From Candidatus Gastranaerophilales bacterium (lineage in GTDB: Bacteria > Cyanobacteriota > Vampirovibrionia > Gastranaerophilales > Gastranaerophilaceae), in assembly GCA_944325155.1 (NCBI GenBank), contig CALUYY010000005.1:1-64000 (forward strand): 64,000 nucleotides of DNA, written 5' to 3'. The notes beneath the pieces are model-generated. The model ran no database searches. It saw only the letters and a program-made list of their open reading frames with translations, and was not told the DNA's origin. A program made the position numbers and the translations under genes. The first letter of the stretch is position 1. The number at the start of each line of letters is the position of its first letter. This document shows, piece after piece, positions 3,874 through 49,124 of this stretch.

Positions 3874-5636
3874 GCAATCCGGCCGTAGCTTTGAATGGCG
3901 GAATTTGTTTTAAGGCTTTGGATTTTTGACATTAAAAGCGGGCTGTATAAATTATTTTGCGTCTGCAATTCAGGATTTTGCCCTTTCGTTTCGGGAATAG
4001 TTGCCGTTTTTGAGGTTTGTATAATTTTTATTCTGCCGTCATCTTTAACGGTTAATTTGTCTTTTGAGGAGTGTTTGTTTATATAGTTAATTGTGAGTTT
4101 ATCTTTGTCATAATCAAATGTTTTATCAATTGTTTTATGAGTCATTGTATCGGGGGTAAAAACGGGATATTCCGTTCCTTTTGCAACAAAGCTGTCATAG
4201 CATACATTATAGGTTTTATCGGAAGGATTATTTATGTCAATCGGGGTTATATTTCCGTTTTTATCGACAAAATTTAATTCTTTTAAATCTCCCTTGTTAT
4301 CCGCAACATAAGTTAAACCGGACACATGTAAAATCCCCGGCTCTCCGGTTTCATTTGAAAAAGTTGCGCTTAGCGATTCTTTTATTGCCTGAACAATTTC
4401 TTTTTCGGTCATCTTTTTAACAAGAAGCGTATTTTTTAAAGGGGTGGATTCTGTTATATCACGCTCTGTAAGGGTGCCTTTTTTCGGAACCTTTCTTGTG
4501 TTTGCGGCATTAATAAATGCAATATCCGCACCCGTTTCCGTTTTCATTGCATCGCACATAAAATGTGTCCAGGCGCTTGGTGTTATGCGTCTGTTTTCCG
4601 GAAGCGGGTCAATATCTTCAACGTTTCCTATAACGGGAGAAGGACCCATTGTAGCATCTTTCAGGTAATTTAATACGGGGCTTTTTTCCTGATTGGTGGG
4701 AATTAACTCATTGTTTGCAGCCGTTATATCACCGTTTTGGTCAAATTCAACATTTAAGATGCCGACATTTCTTGCATTTTCGCCTGTCTGAACAATTACA
4801 ATCGGGTCATTATCGGCATTATAAAAAAGATTTTCATTCGGCGTAATGCCGTCCACTTCCGTATGGGAATGACCTCCCACAATAATATCAACACCATGCA
4901 ACAGGGGTGCGATTTGTTTATCTTTGTCGTTACCTATGTGGGACACAAGAATAATTTTGTTAACCCCTTGTTCTTGCAGTTTTTTGGCTTCTTCATTAAC
5001 CGATTGAACAGATTGTTCGAGGGTTTCGGGGGTAATTCCTTCAAGTTTTCTTTGATCGTTGCCCGTAACTTTAACCAAATCGGGGGGCATAAGACCTATA
5101 AGGCCGTATTTATTGCCGTTTACATCCTCTATAATTGATTTTTGTATATTTTGATAAAATGCATTTCCGTTCGGCACATTCGCATTTGCGGCTAAAAATT
5201 TAGTTTTATCGGGGTAGATAAAATCATACAGTTTGCTTATAGTACTGTCAAATTCGTGGTTTCCGACGGCCGAGGCGTCTATTCCCATTCTTGATAAAAG
5301 ATTTACAATAAGTTTATTTTTCTTATCATCGCCGCCGGAAAAATTGTCGCCCGCTGAAATTTTAAGCGCGTCAACACCTTGTTCGCTGACGGTTTTATCA
5401 AATTTATCGGACGCTGCCACCATGCCTGACATATTATCAACGTTGCCATGCATGTCGTTTATATAAAAAATGCTTAATTTTGTTTTATTTTGGGGAATTG
5501 AAGCCGAAGAAGACTTTTGGGGCAATGAAATATCGGCTTTTACCCCTGATTGCATATATAAGGGCTTATATGAAGGAATTGCATTTATCATACGAAGATA
5601 AAACATGTAAAGGAAAAAAATTGCCCGCAGAAACAA
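3870..5636 (-). CDS. 5'-nucleotidase / UDP-sugar hydrolase-type metallophosphoesterase
   Basis: A protein of up to 588 residues with the two-domain layout of the 5'-nucleotidase family. The N-terminal calcineurin-like domain shows the metal motifs INDMHGN (Asp61, His63), SAGDNF (Asp97), GNHEFD (125-130), a later SHIGND and GGHSHTEVD. The C-terminal half (about 330-545) has the 5_nucleotid_C look, with NAANTRK and a substrate-binding region. Family members hydrolyse nucleotides or related phosphoesters in the periplasm. The start is uncertain: a TTG at 5636 gives the longest frame and a hydrophobic, weakly signal-like leader, while ATG codons lie at 5606 and 5591 without a convincing ribosome site. 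It follows the DtxR-like gene by 4 nt, suggesting co-transcription and perhaps metal-linked regulation. About 60 residues at the C-terminus are low-complexity and polar. Confidence 0.85.
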   Translation of the reverse strand: MFLRAIFFLYMFYLRMINAIPSYKPLYMQSGVKADISLPQKSSSASIPQNKTKLSIFYINDMHGNVDNMSGMVAASDKFDKTVSEQGVDALKISAGDNFSGGDDKKNKLIVNLLSRMGIDASAVGNHEFDSTISKLYDFIYPDKTKFLAANANVPNGNAFYQNIQKSIIEDVNGNKYGLIGLMPPDLVKVTGNDQRKLEGITPETLEQSVQSVNEEAKKLQEQGVNKIILVSHIGNDKDKQIAPLLHGVDIIVGGHSHTEVDGITPNENLFYNADNDPIVIVQTGENARNVGILNVEFDQNGDITAANNELIPTNQEKSPVLNYLKDATMGPSPVIGNVEDIDPLPENRRITPSAWTHFMCDAMKTETGADIAFINAANTRKVPKKGTLTERDITESTPLKNTLLVKKMTEKEIVQAIKESLSATFSNETGEPGILHVSGLTYVADNKGDLKELNFVDKNGNITPIDINNPSDKTYNVCYDSFVAKGTEYPVFTPDTMTHKTIDKTFDYDKDKLTINYINKHSSKDKLTVKDDGRIKIIQTSKTATIPETKGQNPELQTQNNLYSPLLMSKIQSLKTNSAIQSYGRIA

Positions 5637-6265: not shown

Positions 6266-7633
6266 CTACTTAAAGGTATTAAAAGCTTCATCGTCCACAT
6301 TTTTCATAAATTCTTTGTGGAAAAGTTCAAACGATAATGCTTTATTTGCATCTTTATTCATTTTATCGTATCTGTATTGGGTCCATAATCTTGTAATTAA
6401 AGAAAGGGTAAAGCCCATAAACAGAAGGCTGAATGCATAAGGAACACCCGTTATGAAGGCTTTTTCTTTTGTAAGACGTTTTAATTCATCCTTTGCATTT
6501 GTATTTTTTGCTTTTGAAACGGCTTGTGCAATTTTTGGAAGATCGGCACGTTTGGGGACGTCTTTTATTTTGCCTTCCGCCGTTTTTTGAATTAAGTCGG
6601 GGAATTTGTTTTTATTTGCGAGAATTCTTTTAAATCCCGCATCAAACAGGGAGCTTCCGAATATTGTATAGAAAACAACAAGGGGAACTCTTGTCCAAAC
6701 TTCTTTATGGTCTAATTCGCCTCTGTCTTTTGCGGCTTTTGAATACCCGAAAAGCCCGCTTATTGCGGTAAGCGCCAATTGCCCTTTGCTTAAGGCAAGT
6801 TTTCCTTTATCCTCATCAAAATCAAATTTTAAATATTCACCTAAAAATTTATCGAGTCCTTCCTTCTTAATTCCTTTTTTGTGTAATTTTTCGGATATTT
6901 TTTTGCCGGGTTCAAGAATTGTTTCAGATATTTTTTGAAGGGTTTTTGAATCTTTTCCTTTTGTTGCAAGTATAATCCCGCCCGCAAGCGCAAGGGCGGA
7001 ATAAATTCCCGCTTTTAAAAGCTGCCTTTTAGAATGTTTTTCAACTTTTTGCTGTTGTTCTTTGTTTTCTTCCTGAGTATCGTTTAAGTTTGCAATATTG
7101 TTAAAATCAGCTTTTTTAAAGGCTTTTAAAGTAAATAAATTTTTTGCGAAACTCAAATTATATTCAGCAACCGGTATACAGGCGCATGCAAGCGCAATTC
7201 CCGCTTTTGTTGCAATTGATTGGTTTTTTATTGTGTCCGTAAGTGTTTTATTATTTTTAATGGTCTCAACGCTTTTCGGGATTAATTCAACAACTTTATC
7301 TTTAATTTCTTTAGGCTGAATTGTTTTAAAAATTTTATTTCTGAATAAATGTTCGCCTATAACGGGCGGGGCAAAATAAAAAATTGCCGATTCCAAAAAT
7401 TCTAAAAAGCTCATCTCGGCAAAATCCGCTTTGCTTCTTGAAAAAACGGCTTTGGGGAGCCAGTTTGTCGCCGTGTCTTGAATAAATCTTGTGCTTGATA
7501 AATTTTCCTGGGATTTTATAAACGTATCTAAAACTTTTATGCCGAAATCGGAACCTTTGAATTGGACGTTATTTCTTTTATTTTCGGCATTTGAATTATT
7601 TATGTAAAAATTATTGTTAATTGCTTCAAACAT
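6266..7633 (-). CDS. Unknown membrane protein with N-terminal VQFKG motif
   Basis: A 455-residue protein not recognised as a known family. The N-terminus is polar and Asn-rich, with no signal peptide, and contains VQFKG at residues 23-27, the motif shared with three other proteins in this window. Hydrophobic segments occur around residues 85-100, 155-180, 210-225, 285-300, 325-345 and 400-420, so it probably sits in a membrane with several helices. Between them are charged, helix-rich stretches, including a Gln/Glu/Lys run near 190-205. The start is well supported by AAGGGG 8 nt upstream. A strong promoter lies about 190 nt upstream, leaving a structured leader. The role is unknown; the style resembles the 879-residue protein at 42346 but no clear homology is visible. 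Confidence 0.75.
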   Translation of the reverse strand: MFEAINNNFYINNSNAENKRNNVQFKGSDFGIKVLDTFIKSQENLSSTRFIQDTATNWLPKAVFSRSKADFAEMSFLEFLESAIFYFAPPVIGEHLFRNKIFKTIQPKEIKDKVVELIPKSVETIKNNKTLTDTIKNQSIATKAGIALACACIPVAEYNLSFAKNLFTLKAFKKADFNNIANLNDTQEENKEQQQKVEKHSKRQLLKAGIYSALALAGGIILATKGKDSKTLQKISETILEPGKKISEKLHKKGIKKEGLDKFLGEYLKFDFDEDKGKLALSKGQLALTAISGLFGYSKAAKDRGELDHKEVWTRVPLVVFYTIFGSSLFDAGFKRILANKNKFPDLIQKTAEGKIKDVPKRADLPKIAQAVSKAKNTNAKDELKRLTKEKAFITGVPYAFSLLFMGFTLSLITRLWTQYRYDKMNKDANKALSFELFHKEFMKNVDDEAFNTFK

Positions 7634-8606: not shown

Positions 8607-9521
8607 ATGGCTTTATACAATAACATTTTAGAAACAATTGGAAAAACGCCGCTTGTTAAAATTAACAAATTAAACGAAGGAAAAAATATTTATGCAAAAG
8701 TCGAATTTTTTAACCCCGGAGGCTCAATTAAAGACAGAGCGGCATTTGAGATGATAGATAATCTTGAAAAAAAGGGGGAAATTTCACCGGATAAAACCGT
8801 TTTAATTGAACCCACAAGCGGAAACACAGGCATTGGGCTTGCTTTAATTGCAGCAGTTAAAGGATACAGATTAATTTTAACAATGCCTGAAAATATGAGC
8901 CCAGAGAGAAGAAAGCTTCTCTCGGGATACGGCGCAGAGTTAATTTTAACGCCGAAAGAAGACGGCATGAAAGGCTCAATCGATATGGCGAATAAATTAA
9001 ATAAAGATATAAAAAATTCAATTATAATGGGGCAATTTTCAAACCCCCTGAACCCCTTGGCGCATGAAAAAACAACCGCAGTTGAAATTATGAACGATAT
9101 AAACCCCGTTGATATAATCTGTGCGGGGATAGGCACGGGCGGCACCGTAACGGGAATTGCAAGAAAAATAAAAGAAACAAATAAAAATTTATATACAGTC
9201 GGCGTTGAACCTTTATCAAGCCCCTTAATTACGAAAGGATTTTTCGGCCCGCATAAAATTCAGGGAATCGGGGCAAATTTTATTCCGGATAATTATGATA
9301 AAGATGTTGTTGATGAAGTTATTGCAATAAGCGATGAAGAAGCAATTAACACGGCAAGAGAACTTATGAAAAAAGAAGGAATTATGGCGGGAATTTCATC
9401 GGGGGCAAATATGGCGGCTGCAATTAAGCTTTCAAAAAGAAAAGAAAACGAAAATAAAAACATTATAGTAATTTTGCCCGATACGGGAGAAAGATATTTA
9501 TCAAGCGAATTATTTGACTAA
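8607..9521 (+). CDS. cysK: Cysteine synthase A (O-acetylserine sulfhydrylase)
   Basis: A 304-residue PLP enzyme that replaces the acetyl group of O-acetylserine with sulfide to make cysteine. Signatures: NPGGSIKDRAAFEMI with the PLP-binding Lys near residue 40, EPTSGNTGIGLA (the substrate loop), GTGGTVTGIARK for PLP phosphate binding, and SSGAN plus LPDTGERYLS at the end. The ATG at 8607 is chosen because AGGGAG lies 8 nt upstream; the in-frame codon at 8580 falls inside the previous gene. Its tail overlaps the convergent kinase-like gene by 4 nt. Members of this fold also include cystathionine beta-synthase, but the length and motifs fit CysK/CysM. Confidence 0.93.
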   Translation: MALYNNILETIGKTPLVKINKLNEGKNIYAKVEFFNPGGSIKDRAAFEMIDNLEKKGEISPDKTVLIEPTSGNTGIGLALIAAVKGYRLILTMPENMSPERRKLLSGYGAELILTPKEDGMKGSIDMANKLNKDIKNSIIMGQFSNPLNPLAHEKTTAVEIMNDINPVDIICAGIGTGGTVTGIARKIKETNKNLYTVGVEPLSSPLITKGFFGPHKIQGIGANFIPDNYDKDVVDEVIAISDEEAINTARELMKKEGIMAGISSGANMAAAIKLSKRKENENKNIIVILPDTGERYLSSELFD

Positions 9522-11188
9522 TTTTCTCCGGAGGCCTTTTTAAAGAGCTTTTCATATATTGAATAATTAAGCGCACAAAGGTCGTTAACATAGCCGTTTA
9601 AGAATTCTTCTTCTCTTATCATGCGCTCTTTTTCCGTTTGCGATAATTTTCCATTGCTTAAAGCTTTTTGCGCTTTAGTTCTTGCAACGGTTGACTGATA
9701 AAGAGCACTAAGAGAATAAAACAAAGATTCAAACTTTGCGCCTTCAAGATAATTTTCTTCCGCCGCCTTAAGGTTTTTCATAATTTCCTGTTTTATTTTA
9801 TGGTATTCTTTTAAATCTTTATAAAAAGGAGATTTAATCTTAGAGCTGAAAGATTGGGTTTTTCTTAATTCGGTAATTCTTGTTCCGATTGAATAATAAG
9901 TATTATCTTTTATTTCATCCTCAAACCCTAAAAATACGTCGGTATCTGATATTGTGTGCAATATATCGGGGATTTGTTTGTAGGGTTTATTTGATGTTTT
10001 TATAAAAGTCGGAAGAATGTTGTCGCCTTCATTTTGGGGAGAATCGGCAGCGTTTCTTAAAATCCATTCAAATGCGCTGTCGTTGCCGTATCTTCCTTCA
10101 AGTTCGTTTTTCATCATTGAACGCCAGAATAATGCCCAGTCCGTTTCATATTTAAGAAGTTTTTTTAACTCGGGGTCTGATGTTTCTTTTCTTAAGTTTT
10201 CCGCATAATCGCTCATTTCATTGCTTGCTTCGATTGCATAAAGATAATATACGGGTGCCGACATAATATTATATAAATCTTCCTGTTTTTCCGTATCCAT
10301 TGAAGATGTTATGAATCTGTGGGTTAATAAAAGCTGAAGTTTTCTTGCCTGAAGATTTATCATCTCATCCGAAGGGTGTTTTAAATATTTTGCCATTAAT
10401 TTGTCATATTCGGTTATTTCATATCTTACGCCTTGTTTTTCAAAAGCTTCCGCCCTTTTTTGATGATAATTTGCTTTTTCTTCAAGATAGGTTTTAAAAA
10501 GCTCTCTTGCTTTTGTTTCGTCTATTGTTGATAAATATGTTGCAAAGTTTGATTCTTCAAACATCTGCGCATTTGAAGGCGCCATAAAAAAGGGAACTTT
10601 ATAGGTTTTGGCATTTATTTTATGGTCTTCTTCCGTTTCAATTCCGAATTTTTCGCAATATTGAAAATCAAGAAGATTAACCTCGCCGTCTTCCGTAATC
10701 AAACAGTTGCACCTTGAAACATCCCCGTGGTATACCCTTGAAGAATCAAGCTTTGCAAGGCTTGATAAAATTGAAGCAAGGCTTTTTCCGTCCCACTTTG
10801 TTGTTTCGCCGTCGGGGATTTTTCCTTCCATAAAAGTCGTTAAAAGATAATATTTGCCGTCTTCCGTTTCAACGTTTCCGATTAAACTTTGCGCATGGGA
10901 AAAATCTTTGGGTATGTTCATAAGGGCGGTTGCTTCCATGGAAAAGTCGCCGTTTATTTTTTCGGCTTTTCCCTGTTTCGACCTTTTTATGACACAATTT
11001 GTGCCCCCTAAAAGATAGGCTTCCGCAAAAAGCCCCTGCCCGAGTTTTTTATCGTTTTTGCCGTTTGTTTCTTCAAACAAATCAACTTTATCTTTAATAT
11101 CTTCCGGAACGGAGCCGTTTATAACTCTTGTTACCTTGCTTGTAAAATTTATGTTGTTATAATATGTGCCAATCGGGAGTATTTTCAT
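9518..11188 (-). CDS. Protein-kinase-fold protein with N-terminal INFTS motif
   Basis: A 556-residue protein. Residues 1-20 lack a signal peptide but contain INFTS at 13-17. Residues 45-240 show a eukaryotic-like kinase core: G-loop LGQGLFAEAYL (50-59), Lys68 in NCVIKRS, Glu85 as the C-helix Glu, a catalytic loop YHGDVSRCN (Asp156, Asn161) and LLDFQ (Asp174) in the DFG position. HRD to HGD and DFG to DFQ are changes seen in RIO, Kdo and aminoglycoside kinase relatives, so the substrate need not be protein. Residues 240-556 are helical, charged, and unlike known domains. It overlaps the upstream HAD gene by 4 nt, so the two are translationally coupled. Kinase fold is fairly sure; activity and target are unknown. 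Confidence 0.78.
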   Translation of the reverse strand: MKILPIGTYYNNINFTSKVTRVINGSVPEDIKDKVDLFEETNGKNDKKLGQGLFAEAYLLGGTNCVIKRSKQGKAEKINGDFSMEATALMNIPKDFSHAQSLIGNVETEDGKYYLLTTFMEGKIPDGETTKWDGKSLASILSSLAKLDSSRVYHGDVSRCNCLITEDGEVNLLDFQYCEKFGIETEEDHKINAKTYKVPFFMAPSNAQMFEESNFATYLSTIDETKARELFKTYLEEKANYHQKRAEAFEKQGVRYEITEYDKLMAKYLKHPSDEMINLQARKLQLLLTHRFITSSMDTEKQEDLYNIMSAPVYYLYAIEASNEMSDYAENLRKETSDPELKKLLKYETDWALFWRSMMKNELEGRYGNDSAFEWILRNAADSPQNEGDNILPTFIKTSNKPYKQIPDILHTISDTDVFLGFEDEIKDNTYYSIGTRITELRKTQSFSSKIKSPFYKDLKEYHKIKQEIMKNLKAAEENYLEGAKFESLFYSLSALYQSTVARTKAQKALSNGKLSQTEKERMIREEEFLNGYVNDLCALNYSIYEKLFKKASGEN

Positions 11189-12426
11189 TGGTTGTTCCTT
11201 TTAAATTCGGGGTTTTGGCTTGAATAATCTTCTTTTGCGATTTTTATCGCTTCAAGAAGCGTGTGCGGTTTTGTTTCATCATTTTTATCAACAACAATGA
11301 AACGTTTATGTCCGTCAAAATTATAAATTTGTTCAAATTTTGAAATCGTATCATCCAAACTTGAATTGTTTCTGATGAATATAGAGCGCAGGGGCAGGTT
11401 TTGAATTTTTGTTTTGGTGCTTTCTGTTGAATAATCGGAAACATCGGTATCAAGATAATTTTCAATTGAGAGCATATTAAGATCGTTTCTTCCGTCGCCG
11501 CAAACGATTACAAGGTCATTTGAACCTTTTTGCATAATTTCATCAACCATTAATTTTGCATGGTGGAATTTATCAAGTTTTTTAACTTTGCCTCTTGTTT
11601 CGGGTTTGATTTCTATGCTTGTTCCAAGCTGCCAGTTTGAATTATCGGAAACCGAATTAACAAAAGTTTCGCCGTTATGTTCTTTTGTTTGAAAAACTAT
11701 TTTATACCCTTCTTGTTCAAGTTCGTCTTTTAGACCTTTTAATTCTTCAATATATGCGCTTCCGACCGGGGCTGTTAACCTTATAAGAGAATTGCCGTCT
11801 TGCCTTAGAGAGATATAATTTGTTTTATCTTCATCGGGAAGGGCCTGAACATCTTCCTGAAGGGTCATATCGCCCCTGTATCCGTACATGCCCTGATGAG
11901 TCGGGGGTTCTATCAGCATGGGGCAGCCGCTTAACCTTGAAATAAAGGCTTTTACCCTGTCTTTTATTTTAAAACCGTCCCAATTTATGACAAAACGCCT
12001 TAATTGTTTTTGCTTTTTCAAATTAATGTCCGATTCTTCAAACATATCTTCTCTGTCTGAAGAAAAAAAGTCCGGCTTTTTGCTTTTTATAAATTCATCG
12101 CCCCCGTTTACAACGATTAATTTATCCGGAACGGGAATTCTTAAGCCCCTGTCTTTAATTTTTTTCATATAATAATTAAATTCGGATAGGTTCCTTCCCG
12201 TTGAAATCGTAAGCTCCGTTGTTTTTTTGCCGTCATCCGTTGATGAAAGAAACCTTTGAAATTCATCAAAATAAGAATTAAAAGCGTCTTTGTCAAGAGG
12301 TTTTGAGCCATTGCAGATGACATCATGGTTAAATTCATCGGGCATAAATGTGCCGTCAAAATCGGACAAAATTTTAACTTCGCCCGCCATAAACGGCAAA
12401 TTTTGATTTATCGGAGCAATTTTCAT
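11185..12426 (-). CDS. HAD-superfamily phosphatase with N-terminal LPFMA motif
   Basis: A 413-residue protein. Residues 1-16 hold LPFMA at 10-14 and no signal peptide. HAD motif I is LSDFDGTF (Asp22, Asp24), motif II is TISTGR (73-78), a Lys-rich motif III region lies near 285-295, and motif IV is VCGDGRNDLNML near 310. The layout, with a large cap between motifs II and III, resembles Cof-type and sucrose-phosphate-phosphatase-like HADs, which act on sugar phosphates or other small phosphoesters. An AGAGAG ribosome site precedes the ATG at 12426. The kinase-fold gene begins inside its last codons, so a kinase and a phosphatase-like enzyme are made together with the same N-terminal tag. The natural substrate is unknown. 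Confidence 0.82.
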   Translation of the reverse strand: MKIAPINQNLPFMAGEVKILSDFDGTFMPDEFNHDVICNGSKPLDKDAFNSYFDEFQRFLSSTDDGKKTTELTISTGRNLSEFNYYMKKIKDRGLRIPVPDKLIVVNGGDEFIKSKKPDFFSSDREDMFEESDINLKKQKQLRRFVINWDGFKIKDRVKAFISRLSGCPMLIEPPTHQGMYGYRGDMTLQEDVQALPDEDKTNYISLRQDGNSLIRLTAPVGSAYIEELKGLKDELEQEGYKIVFQTKEHNGETFVNSVSDNSNWQLGTSIEIKPETRGKVKKLDKFHHAKLMVDEIMQKGSNDLVIVCGDGRNDLNMLSIENYLDTDVSDYSTESTKTKIQNLPLRSIFIRNNSSLDDTISKFEQIYNFDGHKRFIVVDKNDETKPHTLLEAIKIAKEDYSSQNPEFKRNNQ

Positions 12427-14012: not shown

Positions 14013-14158
14013 AAATATTAGCTCCTTTCTTTTACCCAGTATTATCTTTTTTTGGCTCCGCCAAATTTTTCACATGCAAAATTTAACCGAACCTTTCTAA
14101 TAAAATCGGCAGGGTTTAATAAAGACTTTAGGAAATTTTTGATTGATTTTACAATTAT

Positions 14159-15976
14159 TTACACTTCAATCAAATTTTCATTTTTATTAAACTGCATTTC
14201 ATATAAGGCTCTGTATTGTCCGTTTTCGATTTTTAAAAGCTCGTCATGATTTCCTTGTTCAACCAAATGCCCGTCATTTATAACCATAATTTTATCCGCA
14301 TTTTTAATTGTTGATAATCTGTGGGCTATAACAAAAACGGTTTTATTTTTCATTAAGTTTTCAAGCGCCTTTTGAACAATCGCCTCCGATTTATTATCCA
14401 AAGCGGACGTTGCTTCATCCAAAATTATAATCGGCGCTTTTTTAATCATTGCCCTTGCAATTGCAATTCTTTGTCTTTGCCCGCCCGATAAACTTGTGCC
14501 CATTTCGCCCAAAACCGTATCAACTCCGTTTTCAAGCGTATCGATAAATTCATCCAGATGTGCAAGATGAATAACCTCTTTAATGTCATCATCGGATGCG
14601 GAATAATTTCCCATTAAAATGTTTTCTTTAATTGTGCCCGAGAATAAAAAATTATCCTGAAAAACTTCCGATATATTCATTCTTAAAGATTCAAGCGTAA
14701 AATCTCTTATATCTTTATTATCAATTTTTATGCTTCCCGATTTTATGTCGTAAAACCTCGGCAAAAGATTTACTATTGTTGATTTTCCGCCGCCCGAATT
14801 TCCCACAAGCGCAACCGTCTGTCCTTTTTTCACCTCAAAAGATACATTTTTTATAACGGGTTCATTTTCAATATATTCAAAAACAACGTTTTCAAACGTG
14901 ATTTTGTCTTTGATGTCCGTCAGTTTTGAAGCGTTTTCTTTGTTTTTAATCTCCGGCATTAAATCAAAAAGTTCAAAAACCCTTGCCGCGGCAACAAAAA
15001 CGTTTTGAAGGTTGGTTAACGTGCGCCCCAAATCTTTAACGGGTTTATACAAAAGCAACAATGAGGTAACAAAGCTTGCAAAGCTTCCCGTTGTCATTTC
15101 GCCGTTTATGATTAAAATGTTTCCGATTGCCATAACAATTGCAATTCCGATACTTGCAATTAAATACATAATCGGCGACATCCACCCCACACGCTTGGAT
15201 AATGAAATTGCAAGGTCGAAAGATTTTCTGATTTGGTTTTCAAATTTATGAAAAAGTTTATCCTGAAGGCAATAGCCCGTCATGATTTTGTTTCCGTGAT
15301 AGGTTTCATTAAAATTGGTTGTGATTCCTCCGCCCAAAACCGCCGTTGCGTTTGAGATTTTTTTAATTTTCTTTCTTATTAACGCCAAAGGCAAAAACGC
15401 AACCGTTAAAACAATAACGCCCACAACCGCCAACTTCCAGCTTGTCCACAACAAAACGGCAATTAACCCGAGCGCTTCGACAAAGCATGTTATTAAATGT
15501 TTAAGAGAATCGACAACCGTTCTTGAAGCGGTGTCGGGGTCGGTTAAAAATCTTGTTAAAATAATGCCCGATGAATTTTCGTCAAAAAATTTCGTATCCA
15601 TGGTAATTAACTTTTTGAACAAATCAATTTTTACAAGGTTTGAAATTTTGTTGCTTATCCAATCGGTAAGATAAGAATTTAAATATCTTAAAAGCCCCTG
15701 AACAACGGCAAAGCCCACAATCAAAAATGGAATTAAATTAACGAGTATATCCCTTGTCAAATGAACGGAGCCTAAAAACATCTCGTTTCCGTTAACGACA
15801 ACATCAATATACGGCTTCAGCGCAAATGCGGTGGCACCGTCTAAAAGCCCCAGAGGAATTGCAAGAATAAAGGTTATAAAAATTCTGAACCAATAGGGTT
15901 TAATATAAGGATACAGCCTTTTCAGCAAAAATTTGTAATCGAACGCCTGTTTGGCGGTTGTTGTTTCCAATTTCAT
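14159..15976 (-). CDS. ABC exporter, fused permease and ATPase (MsbA-like)
   Basis: A 605-residue half-transporter. Residues 20-330 form a six-helix type I exporter domain and 355-590 an ATPase with Walker A GNSGGGKST, Q-loop EVFQDNFLF, signature LSGGQRQR, Walker B IIILDEATSALD and the switch His in IAHRLST. The domain order and length match MsbA lipid A flippases and related multidrug exporters. In an organism with an outer membrane a lipid A or lipid-linked substrate is plausible, but motifs alone cannot separate this from a drug exporter. The NUDIX gene lies just upstream in the same direction with a 3-nt gap, so they share a transcript. Confidence 0.9.
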   Translation of the reverse strand: MKLETTTAKQAFDYKFLLKRLYPYIKPYWFRIFITFILAIPLGLLDGATAFALKPYIDVVVNGNEMFLGSVHLTRDILVNLIPFLIVGFAVVQGLLRYLNSYLTDWISNKISNLVKIDLFKKLITMDTKFFDENSSGIILTRFLTDPDTASRTVVDSLKHLITCFVEALGLIAVLLWTSWKLAVVGVIVLTVAFLPLALIRKKIKKISNATAVLGGGITTNFNETYHGNKIMTGYCLQDKLFHKFENQIRKSFDLAISLSKRVGWMSPIMYLIASIGIAIVMAIGNILIINGEMTTGSFASFVTSLLLLYKPVKDLGRTLTNLQNVFVAAARVFELFDLMPEIKNKENASKLTDIKDKITFENVVFEYIENEPVIKNVSFEVKKGQTVALVGNSGGGKSTIVNLLPRFYDIKSGSIKIDNKDIRDFTLESLRMNISEVFQDNFLFSGTIKENILMGNYSASDDDIKEVIHLAHLDEFIDTLENGVDTVLGEMGTSLSGGQRQRIAIARAMIKKAPIIILDEATSALDNKSEAIVQKALENLMKNKTVFVIAHRLSTIKNADKIMVINDGHLVEQGNHDELLKIENGQYRALYEMQFNKNENLIEV

Positions 15977-15979
15977 AAT

Positions 15980-16534: not shown

Positions 16535-16693
16535 CTTTTTGCTCCGATTAAAATTATTATACAATTAAAATCCGTGAAATACCAATTGTTGAATAGTATC
16601 AAGGAGTTTACAAAAATTTACAAAAAAATTTCAATAATAATATAAAAAATAGCAAAAATATTGTTTCAGGCTATTTAAATATTACAAATAATA

Positions 16694-16702: not shown

Positions 16703-16770
16703 TCTTGTAATGGTGTTGTTCATATTGTTACAATCTTAAGTGCTGTGTGTTAAAGGAAGGGGGCAAATTA

Positions 16771-42345: not shown

Positions 42346-44985
42346 ATGCAGACATACTTTAGTATCCTAAGCAGCCAAAACAGCCGCAAAAGCGTGCCTT
42401 TTGGTAAATACGGCGCTTTAAATTCCGAAGCTTTAAGCGCACACAGACGGCTTGTAAATGCAAATAACAATATCGCATTTACCGGTATAGAATCTGCTGC
42501 AAACAAAGCCGTGCAGGGCGCAAAAGATAATGCCGCACAAACCATAAAAAACGGCGCCCGATTTGTCTTGCATAAAATCGTAAAATTCGTTAAAGAAAAT
42601 ATAACTGAAGGAGTTGATACAAAATATGACTTTGAAGATGTCATTATGGAGCAGCTCAAAAAGAATTTCGGGGTAACTTTTGATGATTGTTATGATCAAA
42701 TTCAAACTTATAACGACTTAATAAGCAGGGTTAAAAGCGGTCCTGTTGTTGATAAATTGCATTCTGTTTTTAAAACGGTAAGAGGTAAAAAAGAGAAGTT
42801 TATTATCCGCAAAAACGAAGACGGTTCAATTACATTTCACAAAGACCCGTTCTTAAAAAAAACGCTTTTAAATATTAAAGAATTTACCTGGGGGGGCATT
42901 CTTGACATTGCCGTCTGGGCAAAAAAACGCTATGACAAATTCTGCGCTAAAACAGGGTTCGGGGGGGATACGGTTGCAAAGTCGCCGACATCAAAAATAG
43001 GGCAATTTTTTAAAGATCTTCTTGATAAAAGAGAAGCCGAAAAATCTGCCGAAGATGCTTTTTACAGAATGGCAGGCGTTTTTGAACAGGCGTCAAAAGG
43101 TGTGGATGAAATTGTTTCAAATCAGGCAAAACAAGGCGACATTATAACAAAAGAACTTGCCGGACAAAAAATAGCGGACAACATAAGGGGGCTTGCCGAA
43201 GGTTCTATCAGGGAAGCAAGCAAAAAAGTGGGTAACTACAACACTAAATCGGAACGTGCCTGGAACAGGCTGGGAACGGGTTTTGTGAGCGCACTTTTCA
43301 GTGCAACCGACTTTTACAATATGTCGATGCTTCAAAAAAATGACTCGAAGGAAGCAAATAAATCAAGCAAGAAGCGTTTCCTGCAGGATATGAGAAGGCA
43401 AGGGCTTACCGCAGGCATAACTTATGTACTTTTGGGCGCATTCCAAAATAAAGTTAACTCATCAGTTACTTATGCGGTTTTATCACTGGGCGGCGTTACC
43501 TTAATATCTGAAATTTTATCAAGGTTAATGGGAGGAATTTCCCTGAAACCCTTAACGCCCGAAGAAGCAAGAAAAATTGCCGAAAAACAGGAAAAACAAG
43601 CTAAAAATAAAACCGATAAAAATGAAAATCCGGCGGAAATTAAAAATAATGTACAATTGCTAAAGCCGACGGCTGATAAAGGTTCAAACGATGATGTCTT
43701 TAAGATATTTACAAATAATATAAATATTCAAAATGCAAATAATCAAACACCCCTCACATCTTCGCCAAAGGCATACGACAGTGAGGTATTCGGTATATTT
43801 GAAAATAAACTTAACGAAAAAAATAACAAACAAATAACCTTTAGTGCAAGTGCGGATAACAAAACGCAAGAAACAAAAAAACCCGAAAAGAAAACAAGCT
43901 GGAAAGAAAGAATTATAAAAGGCGTTCTTATTGCAATAGGGGCATCGCTCGGCATAGGATTTTTAAGATCAAGAAATATATTAAATCTGGATACTACAAT
44001 TAAATCACTTTCACAAAAATATCACGATACGGTTGAAAAACTGACAAGAAGAAGACTTATTTTACCGAAAGATGATGTTGACGGGTTCCTTGAATATCTT
44101 AAAAAAGAAGGTTTCAGCGAACAGTACGATGTCCTTAAAGGAGCCTTGAACAGAGTTAAGGACTCAGCCGTTTTGAACGGTGAATCAAATATAGTGAAAA
44201 AATTTATCCCCAAAAAAGAAATTAATCCTAACGGCAGATATTACGATTTAGGCTATGTTGAAAGCAAGGGTAAAAAAGCGGCATTGAATGTTTTAACTTT
44301 CCCGATTGATACAATATCCGGGTTAACGGGCAAAATCAACAATATTATCCGTTCAATGTTCGGTTCAAAAAGTATGTCAAAACACCCGAAAAAAGGCTTA
44401 GACCCTAAAACGGGCGCATTATTTATCGAAAAATATGCAAATAAATACAGAGATGCAATTTGTGCAAACGAATATAAAGACTTTAGAGATGAACTTGCGA
44501 TTGCATTTACAAGACACTTCTCCGAAGCAAATTCGCAGCATAAAAATACCTCGATTGCGATGTTGTCAAGACTGTTAATCACCTTCATTTCAGGCTACTT
44601 CTTTGTTAACGATTACAGAAACCAGGTGTTAATCGATTCAAAAGGTCAGGATGTCGAAAGAGCAAAAGCAACAACAAGAGAAAGAATAGGACATAAAGTA
44701 GCAAACTTCTTCTTAAATTCAATGTTTATGCAACTGTTCAATACAACGTTTGAACCGATATACTTAAATTCCGTTTTCGGTGCGACAATAGTTGCAATGG
44801 CAACCGAATATACGAATGAATCGGCAGTAAGGGCTTCAATCTGCACGCCTACAACAAAAATGACAAGGGATGAACTTATTGAATACGAACAAAAACGCTT
44901 AAATGACCAAGGCATTAAAGGTGATTATTACAGGGCGTTTATGAAATTAACCGGTAAAAAACCCTTGAGCGAAAAAGTAAAATAA
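42346..44985 (+). CDS. Large unknown membrane-associated protein with IAFTG motif
   Basis: An 879-residue protein of no recognised family. There is no signal peptide; the polar N-terminus contains VPFG at 17-20 and IAFTG at 43-47, matching the motif of three other window proteins, and QITFSAS occurs again in the linker near 500. Amphipathic helices dominate. Hydrophobic segments near 345-360, 375-390, 530-545 and 750-770 could span a membrane. A Lys/Glu/Asn-rich linker (400-520) separates two lobes. No usable ribosome site is seen before the ATG. It sits beside the export-gate operon in convergent orientation. Function unknown. Confidence 0.72.
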   Translation: MQTYFSILSSQNSRKSVPFGKYGALNSEALSAHRRLVNANNNIAFTGIESAANKAVQGAKDNAAQTIKNGARFVLHKIVKFVKENITEGVDTKYDFEDVIMEQLKKNFGVTFDDCYDQIQTYNDLISRVKSGPVVDKLHSVFKTVRGKKEKFIIRKNEDGSITFHKDPFLKKTLLNIKEFTWGGILDIAVWAKKRYDKFCAKTGFGGDTVAKSPTSKIGQFFKDLLDKREAEKSAEDAFYRMAGVFEQASKGVDEIVSNQAKQGDIITKELAGQKIADNIRGLAEGSIREASKKVGNYNTKSERAWNRLGTGFVSALFSATDFYNMSMLQKNDSKEANKSSKKRFLQDMRRQGLTAGITYVLLGAFQNKVNSSVTYAVLSLGGVTLISEILSRLMGGISLKPLTPEEARKIAEKQEKQAKNKTDKNENPAEIKNNVQLLKPTADKGSNDDVFKIFTNNINIQNANNQTPLTSSPKAYDSEVFGIFENKLNEKNNKQITFSASADNKTQETKKPEKKTSWKERIIKGVLIAIGASLGIGFLRSRNILNLDTTIKSLSQKYHDTVEKLTRRRLILPKDDVDGFLEYLKKEGFSEQYDVLKGALNRVKDSAVLNGESNIVKKFIPKKEINPNGRYYDLGYVESKGKKAALNVLTFPIDTISGLTGKINNIIRSMFGSKSMSKHPKKGLDPKTGALFIEKYANKYRDAICANEYKDFRDELAIAFTRHFSEANSQHKNTSIAMLSRLLITFISGYFFVNDYRNQVLIDSKGQDVERAKATTRERIGHKVANFFLNSMFMQLFNTTFEPIYLNSVFGATIVAMATEYTNESAVRASICTPTTKMTRDELIEYEQKRLNDQGIKGDYYRAFMKLTGKKPLSEKVK

Positions 44986-44986: not shown

Positions 44987-45772
44987 TTAAAAAACGTTTG
45001 AAAAAGAGGTAAAATAGTCAGCTATTACATTTACAAGCATAGGCAGAACCCATATTAAAATTAATGCGCCCATAACGGGTTTAAAAAGAAAGCTCATTTG
45101 AAAAACATTAACCTGCGGCGCCGTTTTTGAGATAACACCCAAAATAATGTCCTGCCCCAGTGTTGCAAGCAAAATGGGAGCCGCTATCTGCATGCCGACT
45201 ATAAAAGTATTTGATGTAATCAATACAAGATAATCCATATTTATAATTTGATCCAAAGGAAGGTGTGTCATATAAACGGGATAAATTTCAAAACTTCTTA
45301 TAAATGCATCGATAATCCAATAAACACCCCCTATTGCCATAAAAATAATTACGGCCAAAATCGTGAAAAAATTACCCATTAGAGAATTCTGGGTACCCGA
45401 TGTGGGGTCTAAAATCATGGCGGATGAAACGCCTATCTGGCTGTTTATAATGTCGCCCGCCGATGTTATTGCGGCAAGTATACAGTTTACAATGTAGCCT
45501 ATAATAAAACCGAAGGTAAAATTTAATACAAGACACAAAAGAATTGATGTATCCGGGGGAATAGGCGCGGGTTTTAATACAATAGTTAAAATAATTGTTA
45601 TGATAAGCGCAAAAGACAGCCTTACCATAATAGGGTTTTCACTTCTGTTTAAGGGCGGCGCAAACTGCATAACGCCGATTAGTCTGGCAAAAATCATCAT
45701 ACCCGTTCCCAATGCCAGATTAAGCTCCGGAAACAGTTTTGCAAATTCCATTGTAAAAAGGTTTGCTTCCAT
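44987..45772 (-). CDS. fliR: Flagellar/type III export-gate protein FliR
   Basis: A 261-residue integral membrane protein with about six to eight hydrophobic segments. NSQIGVSSAMILDPTSGTQ is the conserved FliR/SctT cytoplasmic loop, and the N-terminal FARLIGVMQFAPPLNR is also diagnostic. With FliP and FliQ it forms the helical core of the export gate. Last gene of the operon. Confidence 0.92.
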   Translation of the reverse strand: MEANLFTMEFAKLFPELNLALGTGMMIFARLIGVMQFAPPLNRSENPIMVRLSFALIITIILTIVLKPAPIPPDTSILLCLVLNFTFGFIIGYIVNCILAAITSAGDIINSQIGVSSAMILDPTSGTQNSLMGNFFTILAVIIFMAIGGVYWIIDAFIRSFEIYPVYMTHLPLDQIINMDYLVLITSNTFIVGMQIAAPILLATLGQDIILGVISKTAPQVNVFQMSFLFKPVMGALILIWVLPMLVNVIADYFTSFSNVF

Positions 45773-45775
45773 TTT

Positions 45776-46204
45776 CTATCCCCTGTACGGTAAAAGCCTG
45801 CACAATCCAAGACTTATTTCGTTATCATTCGGATAAACGGGATTAACGGATAAAACAAGATTTACTATTTCTTTCGATGTTTTATAAAGTCTTATATATG
45901 TATAGGTTTCATGTTTTGTTTTTAAAATGACGCTTTTCATATCCGAGATTTCATTAAGTTCGTTTTTTATGTCATACATTTTTATGTTTTCCGAATCTCC
46001 CCAAATAACGCCTATAATATCACTGTCGCAGGTTATTATATAATCGGATCTTGATTTTATGTTTATTTTGTAGTCGGTTGTTTTTTGAAAATAGTTTTTA
46101 TAATTTTCAATATCAAACTGCACCGCAGGCGCTAAGACCTCTTTTGCCAAAGAAGCGGTTTGAAAAATTAAAACCGTTAAAATTAAAGTTAAAATTTTAT
46201 TCAA
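45776..46204 (-). CDS. Unknown secreted protein between fliQ and fliR
   Basis: A 142-residue protein with an N-terminal signal peptide (residues 1-20, ending SLA). The mature domain is a mix of beta strands (YKINIKSRSDYIITCDSDII, SVILKTKHETYTYIRLYK) with two Cys. No flagellar family matches. The gap to both fli neighbours is only 3 nt, so it is co-expressed with the gate. Confidence 0.7.
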   Translation of the reverse strand: MNKILTLILTVLIFQTASLAKEVLAPAVQFDIENYKNYFQKTTDYKINIKSRSDYIITCDSDIIGVIWGDSENIKMYDIKNELNEISDMKSVILKTKHETYTYIRLYKTSKEIVNLVLSVNPVYPNDNEISLGLCRLLPYRG

Positions 46205-46207
46205 TTG

Positions 46208-46699
46208 TTACCTTCCAAGGATTTTATTTGTTTCAATCAGGTTGGGACGCGGATTGGCGCCTTGATAGGCGGGTGTGTATTTTGATTTTTCCTGCCTGTC
46301 TACCCATGGAATTTTTCCGGGGTTTTGCATAATATCTTTTACTTTATTTGAAGAAGGATTAATCGCATCTTTCATCTCGGACGCAAACGGTCTTGAATGG
46401 TAGTAATAATCGGCCGGAAGGACATACGTTTCCATTTTTGGTATTATGTTGAATGCCATATAAGCACCTTCTTTTATGTATTCGGTCAGAACTTTTATGT
46501 AAAAAACGCCTAAAATAATAATCGTTAAAAATACACCGACAATCTTTGGCGCAGCAGCAATTGTCTGCTCCTGAACCTGGGTTACGGCCTGCAAAATACC
46601 GACAACAAGCCCGACCGCCGCTGCCACAAGAACGCAGGGCATAGATATTAAAAGCATTGCCATAAAGCCTTTTGCCACATATTCTACCAAATATTCCAT
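46208..46699 (-). CDS. fliQ: FliQ with unusual C-terminal extension
   Basis: The first 90 residues are a standard FliQ/SctS: two membrane helices flanking GILQAVTQVQEQTIAAAPK. The family is normally about 90 residues; this protein continues for some 75 more, polar and Pro-rich, probably cytoplasmic or periplasmic, without a recognised fold. The start shares one nt with the fliP stop. Confidence 0.9.
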   Translation of the reverse strand: MEYLVEYVAKGFMAMLLISMPCVLVAAAVGLVVGILQAVTQVQEQTIAAAPKIVGVFLTIIILGVFYIKVLTEYIKEGAYMAFNIIPKMETYVLPADYYYHSRPFASEMKDAINPSSNKVKDIMQNPGKIPWVDRQEKSKYTPAYQGANPRPNLIETNKILGR

Positions 46700-47340
46700 C
46701 AGTTAAAACTCTCCACTAAGCCTTTAACAATTAAACTCCATCCGTCAACGGCAACGAAAATCAGCAGCTTAAACGGTAAAGACACAATTGTCGGCGATAA
46801 CATAAACATACCTAAAGCAAGCAAAATGTTGGCAACGACCAAATCCAACACCGTAAAAGGAACATAAATTATAAAACCGATTTCAAACGCCGTTCTTAAC
46901 TCGCTTAAAATATATGCGGGCGCAACTTCCCACAATGTTAAATCTTCCGGAGTTTCAGGCATTTTTGTTCTTGTTTTTTCTATAAAAAAGACCAAATCTT
47001 CCTGACGTGTTTGTTTCAGCATAAACTCTTTCAAAGGTTCGGACCCTTTTTGAATTGCCATTACGATGTTGCCGTTTTCTTTGTAGGGAACGCTTCCCGC
47101 TTCATACATTCTTTGAAAGACGGGGCTCATTGTATAAAACGTCATTATTATACAAAGTCCGATTAAAACCATAGCAGGCGGAACCGAGTTTGTTCCCATT
47201 GCGGTTTTAAGCATTGAAAATACTATCGCAAATCTTAAAAATGAAGTCATGCACATAAAAACAAACGGCAGAAATGAAAACAGCGTCATTACAAACAGAA
47301 GTTGCAAGACCGGATTTAAATCCTGTAAAATTACATCCAT
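46699..47340 (-). CDS. fliP: Flagellar/type III export-gate protein FliP
   Basis: A 213-residue membrane protein with the family segments FLPFVFMCMTSFLRFAIVFS, GTNSVPPAMVLIGLCIIMTF, YILSELRTAFEIGFIIYVPF and MFMLSPTIVSLPFKLLIFV. Many FliP proteins begin with a cleaved signal peptide; here the first helix starts at once. Start and stop each share one nt with fliO and fliQ. Confidence 0.95.
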   Translation of the reverse strand: MDVILQDLNPVLQLLFVMTLFSFLPFVFMCMTSFLRFAIVFSMLKTAMGTNSVPPAMVLIGLCIIMTFYTMSPVFQRMYEAGSVPYKENGNIVMAIQKGSEPLKEFMLKQTRQEDLVFFIEKTRTKMPETPEDLTLWEVAPAYILSELRTAFEIGFIIYVPFTVLDLVVANILLALGMFMLSPTIVSLPFKLLIFVAVDGWSLIVKGLVESFN

Positions 47341-47768
47341 TAATAATTTCCCCTTTTTGTTTGGTTTTTATCCGAAAGCTCTTTTAAAAGGCTTTTTATT
47401 ACATATTTTTTGTTTTTTGGTTCTTTATTCAAATAAGGATTATTTGAATCTTCAAATTCTTCGTCAAATTTTTCGCTTAAATATCTTTCAATTTGGCGCT
47501 CATTGTTTTTGTGTTTAAAATCTTCGTTTACTTTTGATATAAAACTGATTTTATCTGTTGATGAGGCTATTAAAAATTGTTCATCCCGGCATTTTATAAG
47601 ATACAGTGTTTTTCTTTCGGGCAGTCTTAATACATCGATTACTTTCATTGTTGAATTTTTTCTTACCGGAGCCTGTATCATAAATTTTTTATATATGACA
47701 TATCCGATGACAAGAAGCCCTGTCATTGCAAGTGTATAAACCGTAAAATTTACAAGATACTCTATCAT
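47340..47768 (-). CDS. fliO: FliO-like export-gate assembly protein
   Basis: A 142-residue protein with one N-terminal membrane helix and a cytoplasmic beta domain (MKVIDVLRLPERKTLYLIKC, LIASSTDKISFISKV) of the FliO type, which helps FliP assemble. The C-terminus is charged. Position between the fliN/M-like gene and fliP supports it. Confidence 0.82.
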   Translation of the reverse strand: MIEYLVNFTVYTLAMTGLLVIGYVIYKKFMIQAPVRKNSTMKVIDVLRLPERKTLYLIKCRDEQFLIASSTDKISFISKVNEDFKHKNNERQIERYLSEKFDEEFEDSNNPYLNKEPKNKKYVIKSLLKELSDKNQTKRGNY

Positions 47769-47777
47769 AATACCCTT

Positions 47778-49124
47778 TTATTCTTCAAAGTTTGAGTAGT
47801 CAAAATCTTCTTTATTTCCCTTGTTTTCACTCTGCGCCTGAGGAGCCGCCTGATTATGCGGCTTGTTTGGCGCACCCTGAGGTCTCGGTGCGGGAGCGGG
47901 CCTTGGCGCCGGTCTTTGTGCACCCTGAGGTCTCGGTGCCGGAGCGGGGCGGTTTGGTGCAGAGGGTCTTTGAGGGATGGGCTTTTGCGGAGGTGTTTGC
48001 GGATTCTGCTGTGCAGATGAAGAAGGATTGTGTGCGGGCGGTTCCGGAGCTTTTGTCTGCTCTTGCGCCGTTTCTTTTTCTTCTTTTTTCTTTGCGTAAA
48101 CTTCCGTTATTTTAACCCCGTATTTATCATTTATAATAACGAGTTCTCCTTTTGCAACGGTTTTATTTTCGACAAGCAGAGAAATTTCGTTATTCATAAT
48201 AGGACCTAAATCTATAACAAGTCCTTTTGAAATTTGCTTAAGTTCGCCTAAAGTCATTTTTACTCTTTTAAATTCGGCGGATACTTCAATTTGAATGTCA
48301 TCCCACATACTTTTATTATCGAGCATATAATCTCCCTTTTCATTTTCAAATTCCGTTTCATCACCTTCTTCGTCTTTGGATGTGTCTATCATTAAAGACG
48401 GCTCCGGGTTTACTTTAAATTCATGCGTAATTGTCGGGGTTTTCAGTGTCATTTTTTTTATATCGCTTGTTTCAAGAACAAGAATATCTTCAATATCAAG
48501 GTTTTTTAAATCGTCAAGAGATATTTTTGATAAACCCGCTATTATATCGACATAAGCAAAATTGTTTATAAAATCTTCAAATTCAAAATTATTCTCCAGA
48601 GTAACAGGTTTCGGTTCAAGCCTGTTTAGAGGAATTGTTATTGCAAATTTACCCGCATTTATGTCTTTATTTTTGATTAAAAATACAAAATTTAAACTCG
48701 TTTTTATAAGCGGGTCGATTTTATCCGTTTCGGTTTCTTTTATAATTAAATCGTCAATATTTTTTACGATAAATTCAAAAAAGTTATTTAATATTGTTCT
48801 TTCAAGCTCTGTTAATTTTTCAAGGTCAAAAACAGGATAATTGGAGCCGAAAGTATCATGAAAAATTATTCTTATAAAATCGGAAGAAATTCTTAAAGTT
48901 ATGTGCTGTTTGTTTTTAATCGGAATTTGACAGGTATAGAAAAGCTCCCCTTTTAAAACGGGGTCTTCTTTGATTGATTCATAATCGTTAATTTCATTCA
49001 TCATCACATTAAAGTTAATTTCCCAATATGAAGATAAGGCCTTGATTATTCTTGATGCAATTTCAGAATCAAACCAGTTAAATGTAATATTAAGATTTTC
49101 TTTATCCGATTTTATGTTTTGCAT
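47778..49124 (-). CDS. FliN/FliM-type C-ring protein with Pro-rich tail
   Basis: A 448-residue protein. Residues 1-190 form an unassigned domain; a short acidic region follows; residues 270-345 are a SpoA domain (MTLGELKQISKGLVIDLG, VAKGELVIINDKYGVKI), the fold that builds the flagellar or type III sorting ring. The tail (about 355-440) is Pro/Ala/Gln/Arg-rich and contains a 16-residue repeat (RPAPAPRPQGA). Classic FliN is near 130 residues, so this is an enlarged form. First gene of the operon. Confidence 0.85.
   Translation of the reverse strand: MQNIKSDKENLNITFNWFDSEIASRIIKALSSYWEINFNVMMNEINDYESIKEDPVLKGELFYTCQIPIKNKQHITLRISSDFIRIIFHDTFGSNYPVFDLEKLTELERTILNNFFEFIVKNIDDLIIKETETDKIDPLIKTSLNFVFLIKNKDINAGKFAITIPLNRLEPKPVTLENNFEFEDFINNFAYVDIIAGLSKISLDDLKNLDIEDILVLETSDIKKMTLKTPTITHEFKVNPEPSLMIDTSKDEEGDETEFENEKGDYMLDNKSMWDDIQIEVSAEFKRVKMTLGELKQISKGLVIDLGPIMNNEISLLVENKTVAKGELVIINDKYGVKITEVYAKKKEEKETAQEQTKAPEPPAHNPSSSAQQNPQTPPQKPIPQRPSAPNRPAPAPRPQGAQRPAPRPAPAPRPQGAPNKPHNQAAPQAQSENKGNKEDFDYSNFEE
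47873..47948. repeat. GC-rich direct repeat in the FliN/M tail
   Basis: A 28-bp block occurs at 47873-47900 and 47921-47948 with one mismatch. The period is 48 bp, which is 16 codons. It encodes the RPAPAPRPQGA repeat and is far richer in G and C than the rest of the window. Confidence 0.85.

What the first reader, a model, noticed from the sequence alone, without database searches (positions are those of the whole stretch)
9518..12426. Translationally coupled kinase-fold and HAD-phosphatase genes, both tagged with the same N-terminal motif
The HAD gene (Asp22/Asp24, TISTGR, GDGRND) and the kinase-fold gene (G-loop, Lys68, HGD at 154-156, Asp174) overlap by 4 nt. Both lack signal peptides, and both carry a short polar N-terminus with hydrophobic-x-F-x-[SA] (LPFMA, INFTS). 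The kinase has HGD and DFQ in place of HRD and DFG plus a 300-residue helical tail of no known family. A matched phospho-adding and phospho-removing pair with a common tag could be a two-part effector or intracellular modification system. The function is inference; the motifs and overlap are read directly.
Basis: partly seen in the sequence, partly recalled or inferred. Interest (0 to 1): 0.72.

Follow-up and report, generated by a model that had tools for sequence, protein, structure and literature searches.

The report
Address-tagged kinase–phosphatase pair in gut bacterium
Two overlapping genes of an uncultured gut bacterium encode a protein-kinase-like enzyme and a sugar-phosphatase-like enzyme that stay side by side through evolution, and both carry a short N-terminal 'address label' that we find on many other unrelated proteins of the same bacteria, which points to an undescribed protein-sorting or export signal.

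Summary
In a Candidatus Gastranaerophilales genome (family Gastranaerophilaceae), a HAD gene (11185-12426, -) and a kinase-fold gene (9518-11188, -) overlap by ATGA. AlphaFold models are confident (pLDDT 91 and 88). The HAD is a phosphosugar-type HAD-IIB phosphatase (best: sucrose-phosphatase 1s2o, Z 17.0). The kinase is a protein-kinase-superfamily member (profile to PDB kinases 5e-12). All catalytic residues are invariant in 24-25 homologues. I tabulated 23 loci where the two genes are neighbours, some divergent, some with further tagged genes between them. The shared N-terminal motif is real, but it is not the pair's private tag. It is bipartite, M-x-[IV]-x-x-[IV]...[IVLP]-x-F-x-[GSA], and the only disordered part of both models. 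A profile trained only on pair homologues of other genomes finds 14 of 384 sampled genes in this genome, against 0.0 expected from internal methionines, and almost none in other families. Tagged proteins include second copies of housekeeping enzymes (PRPP synthetase, two 4-alpha-glucanotransferases) whose ordinary copies lack it. So it is probably a family-specific sorting or export address. A flagellin-independent flagellar-type export gate is present in 144/146 family genomes, but other gate-bearing families lack the tag, so that link is unproven.

The parts
11185..12426 (-). HAD-IIB phosphosugar-type phosphatase, 413 aa, N-terminal tag MKIAPINQNLPFMAG
   Evidence: Pfam S6PP 22.1 bits (cut-off 20.3); TIGR01484 HAD-IIB 3.1e-5, below its cut-off; model pLDDT 91.4; sucrose-phosphatase 1s2o Z 17.0; invariant D22, D24, K286, G310, D311, N314, D315 in 24 homologues
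9518..11188 (-). Protein-kinase-fold protein with helical C-terminal region, 556 aa, N-terminal tag MKILPIGTYYNNINFTSKV
   Evidence: PF07714 27.5 bits (cut-off 23.1), PF00069 30.2 bits (just under 31.7); model pLDDT 87.7; protein kinases Z about 12 over residues 19-247; invariant G52, K68, E85, D156, N161, D174 in 25 homologues
11185..11188 (-). ATGA overlap of HAD stop and kinase start (translational coupling)
   Evidence: sequence; 4-nt overlap also in G130, 0-nt gap in G088, G039 and L032
12382..12426 (-). Tag of the HAD protein (residues 1-15), disordered in the model
   Evidence: pLDDT under 50 for residues 1-12 only; conserved in homologues
11132..11188 (-). Tag of the kinase protein (residues 1-19), disordered in the model
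   Evidence: pLDDT under 50 for residues 1-14 only; conserved in homologues
6266..7633 (-). Likely tagged protein of unknown family with two membrane-like segments (tag half NVQFKGS)
   Evidence: sequence; no Pfam family; hydrophobic segments
42346..44985 (+). Likely tagged 879-aa protein of unknown family beside the export-gate genes (SVPFGK ... NIAFTGI)
   Evidence: sequence; hydrophobic segments
44987..49124 (-). Flagellar-type export gate cluster: FliR, unknown 142 aa, FliQ, FliP, FliO, FliN-like; possible export route (hypothesis)
   Evidence: Pfam FliR 4.9e-51, FliQ 1.4e-20, FliP 1.3e-67, FliN 2.4e-18, FliO 7.1e-9; no flagellin in this genome

Best explanation
A conserved two-gene module of Gastranaerophilaceae: an active kinase of the protein-kinase superfamily and an active phosphosugar-type HAD-IIB phosphatase, made together from overlapping genes. 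Both are delivered to the same place by a short, flexible, bipartite N-terminal address (M-x-[IV]-x-x-[IV] ... [IVLP]-x-F-x-[GSA]) that this family puts on many otherwise unrelated proteins, often on second copies of housekeeping enzymes. At that place the pair most likely works as a phosphorylation/dephosphorylation switch or as two steps of one phospho-metabolite pathway. Shown: gene pair, folds (predicted), catalytic residues, co-conservation, genome-wide tag. Inferred: that the tag is a sorting or export address, and that the two enzymes act in one pathway. Unknown: the destination and the substrates; protein export by the family's flagellin-independent flagellar-type gate is the leading concrete candidate, at about 0.3.
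For: Adjacency in 23 tabulated loci, in both orders and also divergent, so not just inherited synteny; profile searches find the kinase beside nearly all HAD loci. A second, divergent kinase+HAD pair in the same genome, both tagged. In one flagellated genome (G111) two tagged pentapeptide-repeat proteins lie between them, one overlapping the kinase gene. Tag conserved on both, disordered in both models. Independent profile: 14/384 genes against 0.0 expected in this genome, at most 2 in each of 12 genomes of other families. Controlled comparison: the tagged PRPP synthetase paralogue in G000, G049 and G032 (G012 keeps only MKI) has an N-terminal extension with the tag, while the 24 housekeeping PRPP synthetases read from related genomes do not; of three 4-alpha-glucanotransferases the canonical one is untagged and the two divergent ones are tagged.
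Against: No experiment; organism uncultured. The tag is short and degenerate, so single assignments are uncertain; a motif search without prior knowledge gave only marginal enrichment (FG.K 1.9e-5 among 2134 patterns). Tag density is lower in the four other family genomes sampled. The pair is present in only about a fifth of family genomes (29 and 30 of 146), so it is accessory. A few HAD loci lack the kinase neighbour (G021, G119). The two enzymes' nearest relatives act on different substrate classes.
Confidence: 0.6

Rival explanations
1. The tagged proteins, pair included, are exported (perhaps injected into another cell) by the flagellin-independent flagellar-type type III gate of these bacteria; kinase and HAD are effectors.
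For: FliP in 144 of 146 family genomes but flagellin in 58. [quoted passage not shown] This genome has FlhA, FliE, FliF, FliG, FliO/P/Q/R, FliN and an FlgE/F/G-like protein and no flagellin. Tagged proteins lack Sec signals; some have C-terminal membrane segments. Tagged glucan enzymes recall Chlamydia, where glycogen-pathway enzymes are type III substrates (PMC9251005, PMC3722199, titles and abstracts only).
Against: Families f3, f6 and f8 have the gate and almost no tag. The Salmonella rod/hook two-part signal needs about 24 residues between its halves (PMC8983047); here the spacer can be under 10. Tagged ATP-dependent enzymes (helicase, PRPP synthetase) would need a recipient cytosol. Previous authors read the gene set as an incomplete flagellum (PMC4040986).
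Confidence: 0.3
2. The tag docks proteins on an internal scaffold, granule or membrane of the bacterium itself (for example a glycogen-associated body), and the pair regulates or belongs to sugar-phosphate metabolism there.
For: Tagged set includes a GH13 enzyme, two GH77 enzymes, a sugar nucleotidyltransferase-like protein, and this HAD whose best structural match is sucrose-phosphatase; several need ATP; some proteins bear repeated copies of the F-x-G motif, as for multivalent docking.
Against: No bacterial microcompartment shell protein in the genome; other tagged proteins (CheR-like methyltransferases, SKI2-like helicase, transglutaminase-like protein) do not fit a glucan body.
Confidence: 0.3
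3. The tag is only a shared N-terminal style (translation-initiation or stability effect, or common ancestry of gene starts) without a sorting role.
For: Short; residues with AT-rich codons (K, I, N) dominate; the tag lies at the extreme N-terminus.
Against: The F-x-[GSA] half lies at variable distance and is kept at 20-30% overall identity in two unrelated folds; 0.0 expected by internal methionines in the same genome; housekeeping paralogues lack it.
Confidence: 0.12
4. The kinase and the HAD are linked only by operon history and destination, with no common substrate; for example a regulatory protein kinase next to a metabolic sugar phosphatase.
For: Nearest relatives act on proteins and on phosphosugars respectively; each gene occurs alone in some genomes.
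Against: Adjacency kept through inversion to divergent arrangement and in a paralogous pair.
Confidence: 0.35

Closest known systems
Bacterial eukaryotic-like protein kinases (PF00069/PF07714; PknB, Rio2 and others)
   Same: Fold over residues 19-247, Z 12-13; K68, E85, D156, N161, D174 invariant; profile matches PDB protein kinases at 5e-12
   Different: HGD/DFQ wording, about 300-residue helical C-terminal region, N-terminal tag; PF00069 score just under its cut-off
HAD-IIB phosphosugar phosphatases (sucrose-phosphatase SPP, MpgP, trehalose-6-phosphate phosphatase)
   Same: All HAD motifs; best match SPP 1s2o Z 17.0 over 236 residues; Pfam S6PP over its cut-off
   Different: 413 aa instead of about 244, extra sequence between the core motifs (enlarged cap), below the NCBIfam HAD-IIB and SPP cut-offs, no PDB relative found by profile
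Two-part export signal of flagellar rod/hook subunits (N-terminal hydrophobic residues plus gate recognition motif, PMC8983047)
   Same: Small hydrophobic residues at positions 3-6 followed by a Phe-containing motif downstream
   Different: Salmonella needs about 24 residues between the halves; here the spacer can be under 10; motif is F-x-[GSA]; no proof of export
Chlamydial type III-secreted glycogen-pathway enzymes (PMC9251005, PMC3722199)
   Same: Enzymes of glucan/sugar-phosphate metabolism without Sec signal in bacteria with a type III-type export gate
   Different: Here only an analogy; no secretion data, and the machinery is flagellar-type (has FliO)

Membership tests
Protein kinase superfamily (Pfam Pkinase clan) | Family profile match over curated cut-off | tested here: met
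   PF07714 27.5 bits over 23.1; PF00069 30.2 bits, just under 31.7
Protein kinase superfamily (Pfam Pkinase clan) | Invariant catalytic residues: glycine loop, Lys, Glu of helix C, HxD Asp, Asn, DFG Asp | tested here: met
   G52, K68, E85, D156, N161, D174 invariant in 25 homologues
Protein kinase superfamily (Pfam Pkinase clan) | Bilobal kinase fold | tested here: met
   Model pLDDT 87.7; PKMYT1 Z 12.7 (211 aligned, 4.2 A), Rio2 Z 12.5 (189, 4.4 A), PknB Z 12.1 (193, 4.3 A)
Protein kinase superfamily (Pfam Pkinase clan) | Phosphotransfer to protein | not testable with these tools
   needs an in vitro kinase assay; a small-molecule substrate is not excluded
HAD superfamily, class IIB phosphosugar phosphatase | Motifs DxDxT, T/S, K, GDxxxD | tested here: met
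   D22, D24, T26, G77-R78 region, K286, G310-D311, N314-D315 invariant
HAD superfamily, class IIB phosphosugar phosphatase | Family profile over cut-off | tested here: inconclusive
   Pfam S6PP 22.1 over 20.3, but NCBIfam HAD-IIB 24.1 under 41.8 and SPP equivalog far under
HAD superfamily, class IIB phosphosugar phosphatase | IIB-type fold | tested here: met
   SPP 1s2o Z 17.0 (236 aligned, 3.7 A), next 13.9; the rows are phosphosugar HAD enzymes
Type III secretion effectors | Genome encodes a type III export gate | tested here: met
   FliP/Q/R/O, FlhA, FliF, FliE, FliG, FliN; no flagellin (FliE/F/G named by eye)
Type III secretion effectors | The tag follows the presence of the gate across families | tested here: not met
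   gate-bearing families f3, f6, f8 have almost no tag in 100-kb samples
Type III secretion effectors | N-terminus directs secretion | not testable with these tools
   needs a reporter secretion assay
Flagellar rod/hook-type export substrate | About 24 residues between N-terminal hydrophobic signal and gate recognition motif (PMC8983047) | tested here: not met
   tag spacer can be under 10 residues
Bacterial microcompartment cargo | BMC shell proteins in the genome | tested here: not met
   PF00936: none in this genome; controls E. coli and Synechococcus found

The most novel reading that the evidence does not exclude
Gastranaerophilaceae use a previously undescribed bipartite, non-Sec N-terminal address (M-x-[IV]-x-x-[IV] ... 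[IVLP]-x-F-x-[GSA]) to send dozens of proteins, including second copies of housekeeping enzymes and this kinase/phosphatase pair, to one destination, possibly out of the cell through a dedicated flagellin-independent flagellar-type export apparatus that nearly every member of the family has kept even without flagella.
Probability: 0.4. Interest if true: 0.85.

Novelty: new variant of a known kind. Interest (0 to 1): 0.62.

Why it matters
The gene pair itself is a new combination of two known enzyme kinds. The wider point matters more: a family of uncultured, fermentative gut relatives of Cyanobacteria appears to label a set of proteins with a common N-terminal motif, and nearly every member keeps a flagellar-type export gate even where flagellin is absent (144 of 146 genomes against 58). 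If the label is an address, it gives a ready list of proteins sent to one place and turns 'what do these gut bacteria do to their surroundings, or inside themselves' into a question with named candidates and a one-residue test (the conserved Phe).

Tried and rejected
Tag as a private mark of the pair: rejected, it is on many other proteins. Bacterial microcompartment cargo: rejected, no BMC shell protein. Tag as the general type III signal of the class: not supported, gate-bearing families f3, f6, f8 lack it. Fit to the Salmonella rod/hook double signal: spacing too short (PMC8983047). A first loose regular expression for the F-x-[GSA] half alone was barely enriched (60/384 against 50/383 in the next window), so only the two-part form was used. 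A self-trained score inflated its own counts; it was replaced by a profile trained on homologues outside this genome. Unguided motif enumeration was underpowered. The genome-contig search by peptide patterns found only two close relatives. Literature: no paper found on a secretion tag or type III secretion in Gastranaerophilales; earlier papers treat the genes as complete or incomplete flagella (PMC4040986, PMC3787301). Helical tail of the kinase: no family in Pfam; its own fold was not searched separately, so 'no known fold' is not claimed.
Full report
What is there. The window belongs to a 1.88-Mb, 23-contig genome of Candidatus Gastranaerophilales (its nearest named relatives in the genome collection carry that name). 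On the minus strand a 413-codon HAD gene (11185-12426) is followed by a 556-codon kinase-fold gene (9518-11188); they overlap by ATGA, with AAAAGGA upstream of the second start.

What the proteins are. The kinase scores over the cut-off of PF07714 and just under that of PF00069; a profile of its homologues matches PDB protein kinases at 5e-12. The AlphaFold model has mean pLDDT 87.7, and residues 19-247 superpose on protein kinases at Z 12-13. The C-terminal 300 residues are helical and poorly conserved. The HAD model has mean pLDDT 91.4; sucrose-phosphatase 1s2o is clearly the best structural match (Z 17.0, next 13.9), and the list is made of phosphosugar HAD enzymes. Its catalytic residues are invariant in 24 homologues. 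Both are therefore probably active enzymes; the substrates are not known.

The pair is conserved. Kinase homologues occur in 29 and HAD homologues in 30 of 146 sampled family genomes. With profiles, nearly every HAD locus read has the kinase next to it. In 23 tabulated loci the order is HAD then kinase on one strand in most, kinase then HAD in two, and divergent in seven, and the gap is mostly under 225 bases. This genome holds a second, divergent kinase+HAD pair (contig C1, about 82.7-86.1 kb). In G111 two tagged pentapeptide-repeat genes lie between HAD and kinase, and the last overlaps the kinase gene; G029 and G090 have similar gaps there. Adjacency kept through inversion points to a functional link. 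Exceptions exist: G021 has the two genes on different contigs and G119 has no kinase neighbour. Outside the family the HAD was found once in 47 genomes of other families in the class (G180).

The tag. In the homologues the N-terminus reads M-x-[IV]-x-x-[IV], a polar spacer, then [IVLP]-x-F-x-[GSA]. Half A is present in 13/16 kinases and 19/23 HADs, half B in 15/16 and 22/23, despite low overall identity. It is the only segment with pLDDT under 50 in each model. To test whether it is special to the pair I trained a position-specific score on pair homologues outside this genome and scored 384 ORFs of a 464-kb sample. At score >=10, 14 genes pass (including the pair and the second pair) and 0.0 are expected from internal methionines of the same proteins; in twelve genomes of other families at most two pass in each. 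The four other family genomes sampled have fewer (0-2 per 100 kb). So the tag is genome-wide here and family-wide on the pair, but its density varies.

What carries it. Pfam names a PRPP synthetase, two CheR-like methyltransferases, a SKI2-like helicase, two 4-alpha-glucanotransferases, a GH13 enzyme, a sugar-nucleotidyltransferase and the second kinase and HAD; others have no family. Several are second copies of housekeeping enzymes. The ordinary PRPP synthetase of this genome lies in this same window (57444-58463) and has no tag. In related genomes 24 ordinary PRPP synthetases lack the tag, while the separate second copy in G000, G049 and G032 has it (G012 keeps only the MKI start). The canonical 4-alpha-glucanotransferase has none; its two divergent paralogues do. 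This is the pattern of an added address.

Where to. A type III-type export gate is nearly universal in the family: FliP in 144 of 146 genomes, flagellin in only 58. Comparing the two tables, flagellated genomes almost always have a second, longer FliP, so the short one belongs to a separate apparatus. This genome has FliO/P/Q/R and FliN in the window, and FlhA with genes that read as FliE, FliF and FliG on contig C3. Earlier papers describe such gene sets as incomplete flagella (PMC4040986). Export through this apparatus is attractive but has a direct counter-test: families f3, f6 and f8 of the same class have the gate and essentially no tag, and the spacing rule of the Salmonella rod/hook signals is not met (PMC8983047). 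An internal scaffold or membrane is the other main option; a microcompartment is excluded by the lack of shell proteins.

Verdict. The motifs, overlap, folds and co-conservation stand. The enzymes are new members of known kinds; the tag may be a new kind of protein address. I put 0.6 on 'conserved enzyme module delivered by a family-specific address', about 0.3 on export by the flagellar-type gate as the route, and 0.4 on the address being a new sorting signal in the strong sense.

Noticed in passing
window 44987-49124; G000 contig C3 63.8-70.6 kb (L188): Flagellar-type export apparatus (FliO/P/Q/R/N, FlhA, FliE/F/G) in a genome without flagellin; the short FliP is in 144/146 family genomes, a second longer FliP goes with flagellin.
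   Followed up: partly
G000 contig C8, 24368-25390 (L187/L189): A second, partial FlhA-profile match (profile 321-656, 1.8e-46) in an ORF of about 480 aa, function unknown.
   Followed up: no
window 3870-5636: 5'-nucleotidase-like protein (Metallophos + 5_nucleotid_C), normally secreted, whose probable start MINAIPSYKPLYMQSG looks tag-like rather than like a signal peptide; start codon uncertain.
   Followed up: no
window 50760-56786: 2008-aa protein built almost entirely of coiled-coil-like repeats (Pfam apolipoprotein-like, below cut-off).
   Followed up: no
window 20862-28675: Type I restriction-modification operon (by eye M, S and R subunits) with a Fic-like gene (24430-25530) and a small gene (23727-24380) between S and R.
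   Followed up: no
G000:C1 (L086) 14150-16751: Tandem tagged CheR-like methyltransferase paralogues.
   Followed up: partly
L065 4878-8108 (G111): Two tagged pentapeptide-repeat proteins inserted in the HAD-kinase operon.
   Followed up: partly
L155 1722-3140 (G164, another family of the class): 472-aa protein with a tag-like start MPITPISFSS...SRVNFNKN and no Pfam family; possibly the tag exists outside the family.
   Followed up: no
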